In this document: positions 12,490 through 26,188 of the stretch, piece after piece
Position numbering within the stretch: the stretch's first letter is position 1
Layout: each line of letters opens with the position of its first letter
DNA from: Bacteroidia bacterium
GTDB taxonomy: Bacteria; Bacteroidota; Bacteroidia; J057; JAIXKT01
Direction: 5' to 3'
DNA: 64,000 nt
NCBI GenBank assembly: GCA_026932145.1
Contig: JAIXKT010000021.1
Span: forward strand, 62,001 to 126,000
Position numbers and translations under genes: made by a program
The notes under the pieces: model-generated
Databases searched by the model: none
What the model saw: the letters and a program-made list of their open reading frames with translations, nothing else
Told to the model about the DNA's origin: nothing

Positions 12490-13870
12490 GAGCGTGTTGC
12501 ATAACCTCTAAATTTTTAAAAACCCCCAAATTTTCTCCCGTTCAAAATAAATTTTGATTTTTTGGGGAGTTTTTTTTACATTTTACGTCTTTTTTTGTGG
12601 GTGTGGGGTTTCATTTTTTATGTTTTTGCCCCTTTTTCGCCTCATTTTTACCAATTGGGCGTATTTTGGGCCTACAGGCTTAAAATAGCTGCATTTGAGG
12701 TGGTGCCGTTTTTGGTGTTAACATATTGTTTACTAATAGCTTAGGTAACCTATACAGGTTGTATGCAATTGCTTCCAGGGCGTGCTGGGCGTGGGTTTTG
12801 GCGATGCCCACATAGCGGGCGGTGCCGCCGCCGAACCAGCTTTTGGTGCCGGCAAAGGTGCGCTCTATTTTGTAGCGGTGTTTGCCGCAGAGTTGGTTGA
12901 ATTTGAGTTGTAATTTTGTTAAGGGTTTGTTTTTCACTGCTTTATAACACACTCTATCTTTAAGTCCCTTCGCTTTGAGGTAGGTGGTATGGGCTTTGGA
13001 TTTGTAGGCTTTGTCGGCATAGATGGCGACTTTTGGGGGAACTTGTGCCTTGGTTATCAATGTGTTAAAGTGGTTATGGTCATGGACGTTGGCGGGTGTG
13101 GTCTCCAGGGCAAGGACCAATCCGTTGCCGTCGGTAATAACGTGTTTTTTGTAGCCAAAGCGGGTTTCTTTGCCTTTTTTGAGCCAGCGGGCTTCGTCGT
13201 CCACGCCAGGTTGATTTACTTTAACAAGCTTTAATTCAGCCGTTTGTGTTTGTATAGCTTCTTCCGTTTGTTCGTTTTCTTTTCTGTCTTCGGCAATTTC
13301 GTAGGTGGGTTTTCCGGTGGGTTTGCGGGGGCTGTCGGTAATGGAGGCATCTATTATGCAGCCGGATTTTACCGTAATAGCATGTTTATCAAGCTGTTGG
13401 TTAAGTTCTTGCAACAGCAAGTCGTAGGCATTGCTTCCTGCCAGTTCGTTGCGGAAGCGGCACAGGGTGCTGTGGTCGGGTACTTCGTCTTCAAGACTCA
13501 GCCCAACGAAGGTCATCCAGCTTAAATCGGTGTTGGTCCTGTCTTCTATGTCTCTGTCGCTCAGGCTTTTATACCAAACGCCGAGCAGTAGCATTTTGAA
13601 AAGAATAATGGGGTTGTAGGCGGGTCTGCCGTCCGGTCTAAGCCCTTTTGGGTAGTGTTTTTGAAGTATTTTTACGATTGATTCCCAATCAATTACCTCA
13701 TTTATTTGCTTTAGAAACGCGTTTTTAGAACTGCGTTTAGAAACGTAGGGCTGGCTAAAACTCATCTGTATTTGGGCGTGCTTTATCACACCACAAAAAT
13801 AATAAATTATTTAATTAATTCAAAATCAAATAGTTAAATATTTTTATTCTTTTTGTCGTGCAACAGGCTC
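12490..13870 (-). mobile_element. IS5-family insertion sequence, apparently intact (1,381 bp)
   Basis: The ends are inverted repeats. The left end is GAGCGTGTTGCATAAC (12490-12505); the right end read inward is GAGCCTGTTGCACGAC (13855-13870), so 13 of 16 positions match. A direct repeat ATTAG flanks the element at 12485-12489 and 13871-13875, consistent with target duplication; the inner TTAG fits the YTAR target of IS5 relatives. One full-length transposase gene occupies the minus strand. About 170 bases between the left repeat and the transposase stop are non-coding and T-rich. Confidence 0.88.
12680..13765 (-). CDS. IS5-family DDE transposase
   Basis: It has an N-terminal DUF772-like domain (PAYNPIILFKMLLLGVWY, then DIEDRTNTDLSWMTFVGL, VPDHSTLCRFR). 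The DDE catalytic core follows: the first Asp in CIIDASITDSP, the second in IYADKAYKS, and Glu in the YKIERTFAG segment. It is uninterrupted, so the element may be active. ATG 13765 gives MSFSQPYVSKR; a GTG at 13789 adds eight residues. A TATTTTTG element (13794-13801, minus strand) leaves a 28-base gap to the ATG, favouring this start. The C-terminal tail is hydrophobic and not conserved to my eye. Confidence 0.92.
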   Translation of the reverse strand: MSFSQPYVSKRSSKNAFLKQINEVIDWESIVKILQKHYPKGLRPDGRPAYNPIILFKMLLLGVWYKSLSDRDIEDRTNTDLSWMTFVGLSLEDEVPDHSTLCRFRNELAGSNAYDLLLQELNQQLDKHAITVKSGCIIDASITDSPRKPTGKPTYEIAEDRKENEQTEEAIQTQTAELKLVKVNQPGVDDEARWLKKGKETRFGYKKHVITDGNGLVLALETTPANVHDHNHFNTLITKAQVPPKVAIYADKAYKSKAHTTYLKAKGLKDRVCYKAVKNKPLTKLQLKFNQLCGKHRYKIERTFAGTKSWFGGGTARYVGIAKTHAQHALEAIAYNLYRLPKLLVNNMLTPKTAPPQMQLF

Positions 13871-13907
13871 ATTAGTTCTAAGGATAAGTTTCGTTTTTAG
13901 GTTATGT

Positions 13908-22766: not shown

Positions 22767-22890
22767 CTGTGATTTTAAAACAAAAAGTAAAGTATTATTA
22801 TTTTTAATTTATTGATAATTATATTTTTAGAATAATTTTTCGGTTAGTTTCTGGAGCTAAACAAACTTAATGAGTTATAAAATAAACGTG

Positions 22891-22898
22891 TATTTTTG
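22891..22898 (+). promoter_or_regulatory. candidate -7 element for the TolC-like gene
   Basis: TATTTTTG fits TAnnTTTG and ends four bases before ATG 22903. This supports 22903 rather than the earlier in-frame ATG at 22870, which lies upstream of the element. Confidence 0.45.
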
Positions 22899-22902
22899 CT
22901 TT

Positions 22903-24462
22903 ATGGGATTTTGGGTAAAAGTGTACTATAAAATACGATGGTTTTTTTGCCTTTTCTTGTTATTTTGGGGGCGAGTGGAGGTCTGTGAAGGCCAAGATTT
23001 GACTTTTTTTTTAGAACAAACAATTCGTTACAATTTCTCTACACGCATTGCGCACCTACGAGTGTCGCAACAACAAGGATTACTTCAGCAGCAACGTTCA
23101 CTTTTTAACTGGGTAGGAGGCCTCTCTGCCGGAATCTCTTCCGCACAAATACCGCTATCAGCATACGATAAAGAGGTTTTATCACTACATCAAGATTTAT
23201 TTAGAGCAGACGGCCTATACTATCAAATTACAGGAAAAAAAACTTTTTCTGCTGGGCAAGAACTCTTAATGTCCGTAGGAGTTCAGTATCAATCATTTTC
23301 GTATTTACCGGGTAATGGCTATCGGGGAGATATTCGCTTTACACTGATTCAACCATTATTGCAAGGAGCCGGAAAAAAAGGCCTTTATGCAGGAACAATC
23401 ATTCAACAATCCCTTTTAAAATCCGAAGAAAATAAGTTTAAAGCAGAAGTATCTTTTCAGATTTACCGTACTGCCGAAAGTTATATCCGCTGGGCAACTC
23501 TACGTTCCCAAATTAATGCAATGTTAGAAGCAGAAACTCGTTATGAGCAGCTTTTCTCTAATATTCAAGAACTTGCAGATGCCGGAAAGTTAAAACAATC
23601 CGATACAATTCCCATAAAAGCCAGCTTATCTAACCAAAAAAGAAAACGCTTAGAAACCGAAATCAAGTTGAATGAAATAGCTGCCCAGCTGATCCTGAAT
23701 ACCGGAACGAATCAAGCCGAAATCCGCCCAACACCGGATATAGAAAGAATAACCCTCGTACCAATAAACAAAATAACGAATAGAAAACAATACCTACAAT
23801 TTGCCGAGCAAAATCGCTTTGATTTAAAAACTACTGAGTACCAAGCTATTGCATATACTAAACTCTTAGAACAATCTAAGCAGCTAAGTTTACCTAAGTT
23901 AGACTTAACCGGAAGCATTGGCCTAACAGGCCAAAGTTTCCGCTATCAAGATGAACCTTTTGCCGGAAAATATTTAATTCAGCCATTATATGCTTCCCCA
24001 ATCGGCCCCAGCTTTGTAGCCGGAATTTCACTATCCTTCCCACCACAAAAAGATTTAGCCAAAGGCAAACAGTTAGAAGCCCAAAGTCTCTTAGAACAAA
24101 CCCGCCTCAGAAATGATTATCTGAAAAACAGCCTTGAAATCAATATCTCTTTACAGCTAAAAAATATAGAACTATCTTATCAAGGCTGGGAAAAAGCCGC
24201 AGAAACCGTTTCTTCATATCAAAAAATAATCGAAAATGAGCAAATTAAACTTGAATTAGGAAAATCAACAATATTGGACTTGTTATATGCACACAACATT
24301 CTTATGGAGGCATCAATAGATAAAATTCAAGCAAAAATGAATTATCTGCTATCTACGCTGGCTCTAAGAGCTGAATGTGGTATGCTTGTTTATTTTGTGA
24401 ATGATGAGGCAGTATTGTATCCAAAATTATTAACAGGATTACCAGAATTACCCAATGAGTAA
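22903..24462 (+). CDS. TolC-family outer-membrane efflux protein
   Basis: From ATG 22903 the N-terminus is a signal peptide with a long aromatic hydrophobic core ending near CEGQ. The mature part starts DLTFFLEQTIRYNF and continues with the two repeated coiled-coil halves typical of TolC channels (PLLQGAGKKGLYAGTII, and a second half with NRFDLKTTEYQAIAYTKLLEQSKQLSLPKLDLTGSIG). Length is about 519 residues. Its last bases overlap the start of the HlyD-type adaptor by eight bases, so the two proteins probably form one export channel. Confidence 0.85.
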   Translation: MGFWVKVYYKIRWFFCLFLLFWGRVEVCEGQDLTFFLEQTIRYNFSTRIAHLRVSQQQGLLQQQRSLFNWVGGLSAGISSAQIPLSAYDKEVLSLHQDLFRADGLYYQITGKKTFSAGQELLMSVGVQYQSFSYLPGNGYRGDIRFTLIQPLLQGAGKKGLYAGTIIQQSLLKSEENKFKAEVSFQIYRTAESYIRWATLRSQINAMLEAETRYEQLFSNIQELADAGKLKQSDTIPIKASLSNQKRKRLETEIKLNEIAAQLILNTGTNQAEIRPTPDIERITLVPINKITNRKQYLQFAEQNRFDLKTTEYQAIAYTKLLEQSKQLSLPKLDLTGSIGLTGQSFRYQDEPFAGKYLIQPLYASPIGPSFVAGISLSFPPQKDLAKGKQLEAQSLLEQTRLRNDYLKNSLEINISLQLKNIELSYQGWEKAAETVSSYQKIIENEQIKLELGKSTILDLLYAHNILMEASIDKIQAKMNYLLSTLALRAECGMLVYFVNDEAVLYPKLLTGLPELPNE

Positions 24463-25690
24463 GCCCATCTTTAGAGAAAAGCCGTTAGAAAAACTCGCTT
24501 CGCCTGAGCAATTAGACGAGATGATGCGTCTTACGAGCTCAAGGCCGTGGTTCGCGCTGATAGCCATGATACTAATACTGCTTGTGTTGCTTAGCTGGTC
24601 TTTTTTTGGCACAGTAACGACCAAAGTAAGCGGGCGAGGAGTGTTGATAAAACCGGAAAGCGTATCCAAAGTAGCCGCCCTCGGAACCGGAAAAGTGATG
24701 GACATCAAAACAAAAAGCGGACAACGAGTTTCGGTAGGAGACACACTGGCAATCGTTTCACAACCAGAACTCGCCGTACAGTTCTCAAACGCGAAACAAG
24801 AACTTGACTTCTACGAAAAACAATTACTTAATAGCCAAAACTTAGAAAAAAGAGACATTAATGCCCAAAAAGACTTCTTAGAAAAAAAACGAAAAGATAT
24901 TAATAATGTCGCTAAGGTTTTAAAAGAAAGAATTATTACCCTGCAAAATCGCATCGAAGCAGAAGAAAAACTGTTAGATAAAGGATTGATAGCCAAACAG
25001 GATTTGGAAAACACGAAGCAAAGCTACACAAACACCCAGCATGAAATAGAGGCAAACCAGATTCGACTCAAGCAATTAGACATAGATTTACAAAATATTA
25101 TTGAACAGAAATCCCATTACAACGACGGAATATTAGCCCAAAGAAACCAAGCCTTACATAAACTGCGTCTGTTAGAAGCACAGTTAAATGTTCAATCCAT
25201 TATTACAAGCCCATTTTCCGGCGTAATCTTAGAAATAGTTGCCAAAGAAGGGGATTTAATTCCGGCAGGAGCGACCATTTTAAGCATAGAACAAACAACA
25301 GATACCAAAGACTTAATCGCATTAGTATATGTTCCGGCGGTTGACGGGAAAAAAATAAAGGTTGGCATGGAATCCCACGTAGCACCGTCTATCGTTAGGG
25401 TTGAAGAGCATGGTTATGTTAAAGGAACAGTTATCTCTGTATCTGGATTTCCGGCTACCAAACAGGCAATGGAAAATGAAATTGGAAACACTCAATTAGT
25501 GCAATCACTTTTGAATGAGCAAGATGCACTCATAGCAGTACAAATTAAACTGAAAAAAGACCTGAGTACCAAAAGCCAATATGAATGGACAGCCTCCCAT
25601 GGCCCGGACGTTCAGATACAAACCGGTACTTTATGTAATGCACAAATAACAACCGAAAAAAGAAAACCCGTTCAACTGCTGTTTCATTAG
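24455..25690 (+). CDS. HlyD-family adaptor resembling NHLP/NHLM bacteriocin-system secretion proteins
   Basis: A 411-residue membrane fusion protein with one TM helix (about 33-53), a lipoyl half (VAALGTGKVMDIKTKSGQRVSVGD), a long coiled coil (about 105-250) and the second lipoyl half (SPFSGVILEIVAKEGDLI). The N-terminus, FREKPLEKLASPEQLDEMM, matches my memory of the TIGR03794-type adaptors of nitrile-hydratase-leader peptide systems, which begin with an Ala/Pro-Leu-Glu-x-Leu-x-Ser-Pro-Glu-Gln-Leu-Asp pattern. Those systems pair it with peptidase-ABC transporters; none is encoded nearby. The subfamily call is from memory and needs a profile search. Confidence 0.78.
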   Translation: MSKPIFREKPLEKLASPEQLDEMMRLTSSRPWFALIAMILILLVLLSWSFFGTVTTKVSGRGVLIKPESVSKVAALGTGKVMDIKTKSGQRVSVGDTLAIVSQPELAVQFSNAKQELDFYEKQLLNSQNLEKRDINAQKDFLEKKRKDINNVAKVLKERIITLQNRIEAEEKLLDKGLIAKQDLENTKQSYTNTQHEIEANQIRLKQLDIDLQNIIEQKSHYNDGILAQRNQALHKLRLLEAQLNVQSIITSPFSGVILEIVAKEGDLIPAGATILSIEQTTDTKDLIALVYVPAVDGKKIKVGMESHVAPSIVRVEEHGYVKGTVISVSGFPATKQAMENEIGNTQLVQSLLNEQDALIAVQIKLKKDLSTKSQYEWTASHGPDVQIQTGTLCNAQITTEKRKPVQLLFH

Positions 25691-25795
25691 TTTTAGAGGT
25701 ATAAGTATCGTTGTTTTAAAAGGTAATTACGAAAATCTCTCAGCGTGATTTTGAGTAGTCAAAAATAATTCCGTTATTTGGGCTTGAAATCACGT

Positions 25796-26188
25796 ATGGT
25801 GCGAGCAATTATTATTGTAGCCGTATTGGGAGTTTTGTTTAGCTGTAACAAAAAGACAGAACTTCCTAATAACCAGCTAAATATACCTGTTAAGGATACA
25901 ACAGCCACTGGAAATGTAGGAAATTTAGAACTTACAGTATTTCATCCGGTTTTTGGAACGGGGCCGGGGTTTTTCATAAAAACCTATCGTTCTCGCTTAG
26001 ATCTGGAAAGAAATAACTACTTCAAGACTACAAATACCAATAAAGAAGGAATTGCTACAATATCTTCTTTACCTATGGGAATGGTTTATTTTTCCTGCTA
26101 TTATCCTCAGGATCCGGCACTTACAGCCTTGGATTCTATCTATATTTTACCCAATTATACCAACAAAGACAGTTTATTCCTTCAATGA
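25796..26188 (+). CDS. small putative lipoprotein
   Basis: ATG 25796 gives MVRAIIIVAVLGVLFSC, a signal peptide with a lipobox ending at Cys17. Earlier in-frame TTG codons (25778, 25784) would bury this. The mature part (about 113 residues) has a Thr/Asn-rich linker and then a sequence reminiscent of small beta-sandwich folds (LELTVFHP...GIATISSLPMGMVYFSCYYP). No family is recognised. Its stop overlaps the trxB start in an ATGA arrangement (26185-26188), so it is translationally coupled to thioredoxin reductase. Confidence 0.65.
   Translation: MVRAIIIVAVLGVLFSCNKKTELPNNQLNIPVKDTTATGNVGNLELTVFHPVFGTGPGFFIKTYRSRLDLERNNYFKTTNTNKEGIATISSLPMGMVYFSCYYPQDPALTALDSIYILPNYTNKDSLFLQ

What the first reader, a model, noticed from the sequence alone, without database searches (positions are those of the whole stretch)
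22903..25690. NHLP-type adaptor and TolC pair without the ABC transporter or peptide genes
The HlyD-like protein starts with a Leu-Glu-x-Leu-x-Ser-Pro-Glu-Gln-Leu-Asp pattern that I associate with nitrile-hydratase-leader peptide export systems. Those normally include peptidase-ABC transporters and a precursor peptide. Here only the outer-membrane channel and adaptor are present, followed by an unrelated lipoprotein and trxB. Either the rest is elsewhere or the pair has been adopted by another exporter.
Basis: partly seen in the sequence, partly recalled or inferred. Interest (0 to 1): 0.5.

Follow-up and report, generated by a model that had tools for sequence, protein, structure and literature searches.

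The report
Scattered parts of a peptide exporter
The two genes are the outer half of a known type of bacterial peptide-export machine; its inner pumps and its likely cargo peptide are present too, but in this genome they lie at separate places instead of in one gene cluster.

Summary
The gene at 24455-25690 is an NHLP-family adaptor: 323 bits against TIGR03794 (cut-off 156) versus 71 against generic HlyD (cut-off 209). A TolC-type gene precedes and overlaps it. No NHLP ABC or peptide gene adjoins the pair.

The genome holds one NHLP peptidase-ABC over the cut-off (C66, 1012 bits), one NHLP second ABC (C44, 858 bits) and one NHLP-like precursor, below its family cut-off (C43). All are well inside contigs; composition fits one genome and the catalytic residues checked are intact.

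The layout is unusual. In 50 of 52 related loci and 28 of 29 other genomes of a phylum sample, an NHLP ABC gene lies within 6 kb of the adaptor; in the three exceptions the DNA ends just downstream. Trees put adaptor and both ABC proteins outside the Bacteroidia operon clade, on long branches; the AU test is weakly against grouping for one of three.

Most likely a complete, diverged, dispersed NHLP export system; that its parts cooperate is inferred. Known kind, odd layout, modest interest.

The parts
22870..24462 (+). TolC-type outer-membrane channel gene (start at 22870 or 22903)
   Evidence: TolC directly upstream of the adaptor is also the order in the Bacteroidia NHLP operons seen; 24, 21 and 23% identity to three operon TolCs
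24455..25690 (+). NHLP-family HlyD-like periplasmic adaptor gene (TIGR03794)
   Evidence: 323.3 bits, cut-off 156.2; the only match above the cut-off in the genome; lacks about 11 C-terminal residues that three operon adaptors have, and the frame after its stop shows no such tail

Best explanation
The pair is the periplasmic and outer-membrane half of an NHLP-type (nitrile-hydratase-leader) peptide export system whose genes are dispersed in this genome. SHOWN: one adaptor with TolC (window), one peptidase-ABC over its family cut-off (C66:24397-26559), one second NHLP ABC over its cut-off (C44:82498-85305) and one NHLP-like precursor (C43:42096-42386) exist in the assembly on different contigs; the catalytic residues checked in the two ABC proteins are intact. 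INFERRED: the precursor METTK...SICGG|AGFTTTAVKRKLCFTLQ is bound through its leader by the peptidase-ABC, cut after Gly-Gly by the C39 domain, and moved by the two NHLP ABC proteins through the adaptor and the TolC channel to the outside, giving a 17-residue peptide. ALSO INFERRED: rearrangement broke up an ancestral operon of the order TolC-adaptor-ABC1-ABC2, leaving the first two genes in the window.
For: Adaptor family membership. Peptidase-ABC: 1011.6 bits, cut-off 853.3, 0 of 14 control genomes over the cut-off; its C39 domain is the only Pfam C39 match in the genome at E 0.001. Second ABC: 857.7 bits, cut-off 709.4, 0 of 14 controls over the cut-off. Precursor: one hit in the genome with TIGR03793 (E 3.4e-9; 41.7 bits as a protein), one with itself, one with a 13-row leader alignment that includes it (77 bits, E 2.3e-21); by phmmer among 11,541 small ORFs it resembles leader peptides beside compact operons (best E 8.9e-8). 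Catalytic Q/C/H/D of C39 and the ABC motif residues of ABC1, and the ABC motif residues of ABC2, are as in relatives. 4-mer correlation of the C66, C43 and C44 stretches with the window is 0.971-0.989, against 0.97-0.98 inside the window and 0.41-0.72 for three order mates; an IS of the window is found at 99.8% on C66 beside ABC1. Elsewhere these families are clustered: 50 of 52 loci and 28 of 29 genomes, and 6 of 6 other class genomes with a strong ABC1 match have the adaptor beside it (four of the six had been seen in earlier calls). Trees put the three proteins at similar deep positions outside the Bacteroidia operon clade with end branches of 2.2-2.4.
Against: No linkage, so nothing ties the parts physically or in regulation. 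The precursor is below the TIGR03793 cut-off of 50.9, and 5 of 14 control genomes also ring with that family at E up to 1, none over the cut-off. No modification enzyme was seen around the peptide, ABC1 or ABC2 (by eye; Pfam on 19 ORFs); the whole genome was not searched for one. A TIGR03896-like protein lies upstream of TolC in L025 (148.6 bits, below its cut-off) and by eye in L024 and L026, but the own genome gives no match. The TolC is very diverged and unplaced in a quick tree. The trees do not agree firmly on a sister group: AU test against grouping with the Bacteroidia clade p = 0.171 (adaptor), 0.0243 (ABC1), 0.239 (ABC2), with long-branch warnings, so a common origin of the three is compatible, not proven. 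The shared IS ties only C66 to the window, not C43 or C44. A transposase gene ends 71 bases upstream of the peptide gene.
Confidence: 0.77

Rival explanations
1. The adaptor and TolC pair has been taken over by another, non-NHLP ABC exporter of the genome (for example one of the exporter-type ABC proteins on C28, C41, C51 or C3) and no longer serves NHLP export.
For: The pair is not beside its ABC genes; the genome holds four further exporter-type ABC proteins with frames of 598-612 aa that match TIGR03796 below its cut-off.
Against: Both NHLP ABC proteins and an NHLP-like precursor are kept with the checked catalytic residues intact in the ABC proteins, and no second TIGR03794 adaptor over the cut-off is there to serve them; no second C39 domain was found.
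Confidence: 0.12
2. The separation is an artefact: contigs of different organisms were binned together, or one operon was misassembled.
For: The assembly is in 66 contigs with an estimated contamination of 3.01%; IS copies lie near ABC1 and a transposase gene lies near the peptide gene.
Against: All four loci are well inside contigs: C66 of 59,426 and C43 of 93,440 bases, C44 of 124,059, C21 of at least 126,000. They sit among ordinary chromosomal genes and match the window in 4-mer usage; a 99.8% IS is shared by C21 and C66.
Confidence: 0.04
3. The system is a decaying relic: the operon was broken up and its parts are drifting without function.
For: Dispersal was seen in no other genome of the samples; long branches; adaptor C-terminus shorter than in three relatives; a transposase gene upstream of the peptide gene; no TIGR03896 match.
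Against: Adaptor, ABC1 and ABC2 match their profiles over nearly the full length, and the catalytic residues checked are conserved in both ABC proteins; erosion of at least one would be expected.
Confidence: 0.06

Closest known systems
NHLP export system TIGR03794 / TIGR03796 / TIGR03797 (Haft, Basu and Mitchell 2010, PMC2887384; abstract, outline and sections 5, 6 and 9 read)
   Same: Same three transport families, each over its curated cut-off, plus an NHLP-like precursor with a Gly-Gly site.
   Different: The paper describes a three-gene transport cluster; here the three genes and the precursor are at four separate loci, and the precursor is below the family cut-off. The paper notes modification genes far from the precursor in Microscilla marina; in its Table 2 the M. 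marina 'Trans' gene has a gi number about 1,800 away from the other two, which may mean a partial split there (my inference from the numbers).
Compact Bacteroidia NHLP operons: CNMP-type protein, TolC, adaptor, ABC1, ABC2, DUF7005-type gene (L025 and L026; L024 with ABC1 in two frames)
   Same: Same families; TolC directly precedes the adaptor as in the window.
   Different: Genes in one cluster, in many related loci with precursor genes close by. The window's adaptor is 30-33% identical to these three and falls outside the Bacteroidia clade in the tree (grouping with it not rejected, p 0.171).
Peptidase-containing peptide ABC transporter of PDB 4ry2 (known as PCAT1, name recalled)
   Same: Best-scoring solved chain by sequence for the genome's peptidase-ABC, and covering its C39 part (349 bits, residues 9-716); model for cut-and-export.
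   Different: From a Gram-positive (recalled), so no adaptor or TolC; the window adaptor itself has no PDB match at E 0.01.

Membership tests
NHLP bacteriocin system secretion protein (TIGR03794) | Whole-protein score over the curated cut-off, full length | tested here: met
   323.3 bits, cut-off 156.2, profile 1-416 of 421
NHLP bacteriocin system secretion protein (TIGR03794) | Better match than generic HlyD or EmrA families | tested here: met
   next best TIGR01843 71.4 bits, TIGR00998 53.2 bits, both below their cut-offs; no CvaA family was among the listed matches
NHLP export system | Peptidase-ABC (TIGR03796) in the genome | tested here: met
   1011.6 bits, cut-off 853.3, C66; C39 domain 122.8 bits
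NHLP export system | Second ABC without peptidase (TIGR03797) in the genome | tested here: met
   857.7 bits, cut-off 709.4, C44
NHLP export system | The three transport genes form one cluster | tested here: not met
   C21, C66 and C44, each well inside its contig; linked in 50 of 52 loci and 28 of 29 genomes elsewhere
NHLP export system | NHLP leader precursor (TIGR03793) with Gly-Gly site | tested here: inconclusive
   97-aa ORF with ...SICGG and a 17-residue tail; 41.7 bits, below the cut-off of 50.9; E 2.3e-21 with a leader alignment that includes it; best phmmer match to a relative's leader E 8.9e-8
NHLP export system | Peptide is cut and exported by these proteins | not testable with these tools
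   needs experiment
NHLP-type RiPP pathway | Modification enzyme (cyclodehydratase, LanM or radical SAM) | not tested

The most novel reading that the evidence does not exclude
A complete NHLP export machine that has been taken apart into separately placed, separately regulated genes and kept for one short, perhaps unmodified, peptide. It would then act less like a bacteriocin cassette that moves as a unit and more like a fixed cell function such as peptide signalling.
Probability: 0.2. Interest if true: 0.5.

Novelty: new member of a known kind. Interest (0 to 1): 0.27.

Why it matters
Genome mining for exported peptides looks for clusters. A genome in which adaptor, two ABC proteins and precursor are present but all apart could be read as having none. 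If the parts do work together, it shows that NHLP export does not need linkage, and it offers a simple one-adaptor, one-peptidase, one-peptide case in which to test which ABC protein does what.

Tried and rejected
Generic HlyD or EmrA assignment: rejected on scores. Absence of NHLP transporters from the genome: rejected. Close relatives with the same dispersal: none found; the order holds 22 genomes, 4 with the adaptor, and the other three have adaptor and ABC genes in one cluster. No other genome of the window's own family was listed among the relatives and order searches. The phylum and class samples were 395 genomes each, drawn from larger groups, and only 4 or 2 candidates a genome were scored in the rows shown, so their counts are lower bounds; G016, whose ABC1 is in two frames, does not ring.

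A clear sister group for the genome's NHLP proteins: not obtained. Quick trees hinted at cyanobacteria for adaptor and ABC1 (83, 84) and left ABC2 open; careful trees kept this only for ABC1 (96/93), with long-branch warnings. The rows of the careful trees were a hand-chosen subset of the loci held: L024 and several close copies were left out, and L064 has no ABC1. L024's ABC1 was left out of the quick tree because it lies in two frames. A quick tree left the window's TolC unplaced; a careful TolC tree was not built.

More precursor peptides in the genome: none found with TIGR03793, with the peptide itself or with a leader alignment. Solved-structure match for the adaptor: none at E 0.01. PHROGs for the precursor and the lipoprotein: nothing useful. 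No structure was predicted.

Papers: among the titles and abstract starts listed (15 of 57; 4 of 4; 3 of 3) I saw none on a dispersed NHLP system; one search returned none. Of PMC6959600 I saw passages only: NHLP-type transporters in Legionella with two ABC proteins at one locus.

Full report
What is at the place. The window at 22870-25690 encodes a TolC-type channel and a HlyD-type adaptor, overlapping by 8 bases and so probably co-translated. Upstream are a MoxR-type ATPase and a SpoIID-domain protein; downstream, after 87 bases, a 136-aa putative lipoprotein without family match and then trxB, named by eye. The adaptor belongs to TIGR03794 by a wide margin (323 bits, cut-off 156), while generic HlyD gives 71 bits against a cut-off of 209.

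The rest of the system. The window is bases 62001-126000 of contig C21 of a 3.48-Mb, 66-contig genome rated 100% complete with 3.01% contamination. That genome has one protein over the cut-off for each NHLP transport family: adaptor on C21, peptidase-ABC on C66 at 1011.6 bits, second ABC on C44 at 857.7 bits; of 14 control genomes none reaches any of the three cut-offs. The peptidase-ABC holds the only C39 domain found. A single ORF resembles NHLP leaders: 97 aa on C43, TIGR03793 41.7 bits (below the 50.9 cut-off), and 77 bits with a 13-row leader alignment that includes the peptide itself. With TIGR03793, 5 of 14 control genomes also ring at E up to 1, none over the cut-off; the own match has E 3.4e-9. 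The peptide ends in SICGG followed by 17 residues, and its gene lies 6 bases before an M23-peptidase gene. Its best match among small ORFs of other loci is a leader peptide beside a compact operon (E 8.9e-8).

Are the four loci one genome? Each is well inside its contig. 4-mer usage of the three other stretches correlates 0.971-0.989 with the window, as within the window (0.97-0.98), against 0.41-0.72 for loci of three order mates. An insertion sequence in the window (12559-13871) matches at 99.8% one beside the peptidase-ABC on C66, which has a second copy next to it; the C43 and C44 stretches do not carry it.

How unusual is the layout? In genome contigs, 52 loci with an adaptor relative were found; 50 of 52 have an NHLP ABC gene within 6 kb on the same strand, 47 of 52 with the peptidase-ABC within 300 bases. 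In the two exceptions the adaptor ORF ends 2 and 72 bases from the downstream end of the contig; the upstream DNA held (10.0 and 3.2 kb) shows no such gene. In a phylum sample 30 of 395 genomes have a match; of the 29 other than the own genome, 28 are linked and one has adaptor fragments at the edge of a contig. In a class sample 7 of 395 have a strong peptidase-ABC match, and the six other than the own genome have the adaptor beside it. In the order, 4 of 22 genomes have the adaptor.

Evolution. Careful trees with 40 or 41 rows, a hand-chosen subset, place adaptor, ABC1 and ABC2 of this genome outside the well-supported Bacteroidia operon clade, on long end branches of 2.36, 2.22 and 2.29. 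Forcing them to group with that clade is not rejected for adaptor (p 0.171) and ABC2 (p 0.239) and weakly rejected for ABC1 (p 0.0243). This fits one old, diverged NHLP lineage, but a firm common origin is not shown. The gene order TolC then adaptor equals that of Bacteroidia operons, which suggests that the break came after the adaptor; IS copies near ABC1 and a transposase gene near the peptide gene are possible agents.

How it most likely works. The C39 catalytic residues and ABC motif residues checked in ABC1, and the ABC motif residues in ABC2, are intact. By analogy with the solved peptidase-containing transporter of PDB 4ry2 (PCAT1, name recalled) and with the NHLP systems of PMC2887384 (sections 5, 6 and 9 read), the precursor would be bound by its leader, cut after Gly-Gly and exported through adaptor and channel. 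Presence and integrity of the parts are shown; their cooperation is inferred.

What speaks against. No linkage; precursor below cut-off; no modification enzyme seen nearby; no TIGR03896 match in the genome; TolC hardly related to operon TolCs and unplaced; and other ABC exporters available to the pair.

Verdict. A real, ordinary kind of machine in an unusual, dispersed layout.

Noticed in passing
window 12559-13871: Insertion sequence (transposase ORF 12680-13789, - strand) 99.8% identical to one beside the peptidase-ABC gene on C66, which has a second copy next to it (L022:12701-15456).
   Followed up: partly
L025:15454-16620, L026:15308-16441, L024:575-1741: A gene of the DUF7005 type (Pfam match tested on L025 only) follows ABC2 in Bacteroidia NHLP operons: 19 of the 21 Bacteroidota loci where DNA continues past ABC2 (my count). 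By eye it holds an HExxH motif (HESAH, HEAVH, HECAH), so it may be a metal-dependent enzyme acting on the peptide. Not searched for in the window's genome.
   Followed up: partly
L023:8128-9387, - strand: The single NHLP-like precursor gene lies 6 bases before an M23-peptidase gene, with an IS4/5-type transposase gene 71 bases upstream. Whether peptide and peptidase belong together is open.
   Followed up: no
L025:16757-18280: A radical SAM/SPASM protein (best match TIGR04463, 174.7 bits, below the cut-off of 525) close to the NHLP operon of G009: possible peptide maturase.
   Followed up: no
L024:4660-6887: In G016 the peptidase-ABC gene lies in two overlapping frames, so it is broken or misread there.
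   Followed up: no
window 25778-26188: A 136-aa putative lipoprotein directly downstream of the adaptor, no match in NCBIfam or Pfam at E 0.1 and only a chance-level PHROG.
   Followed up: partly
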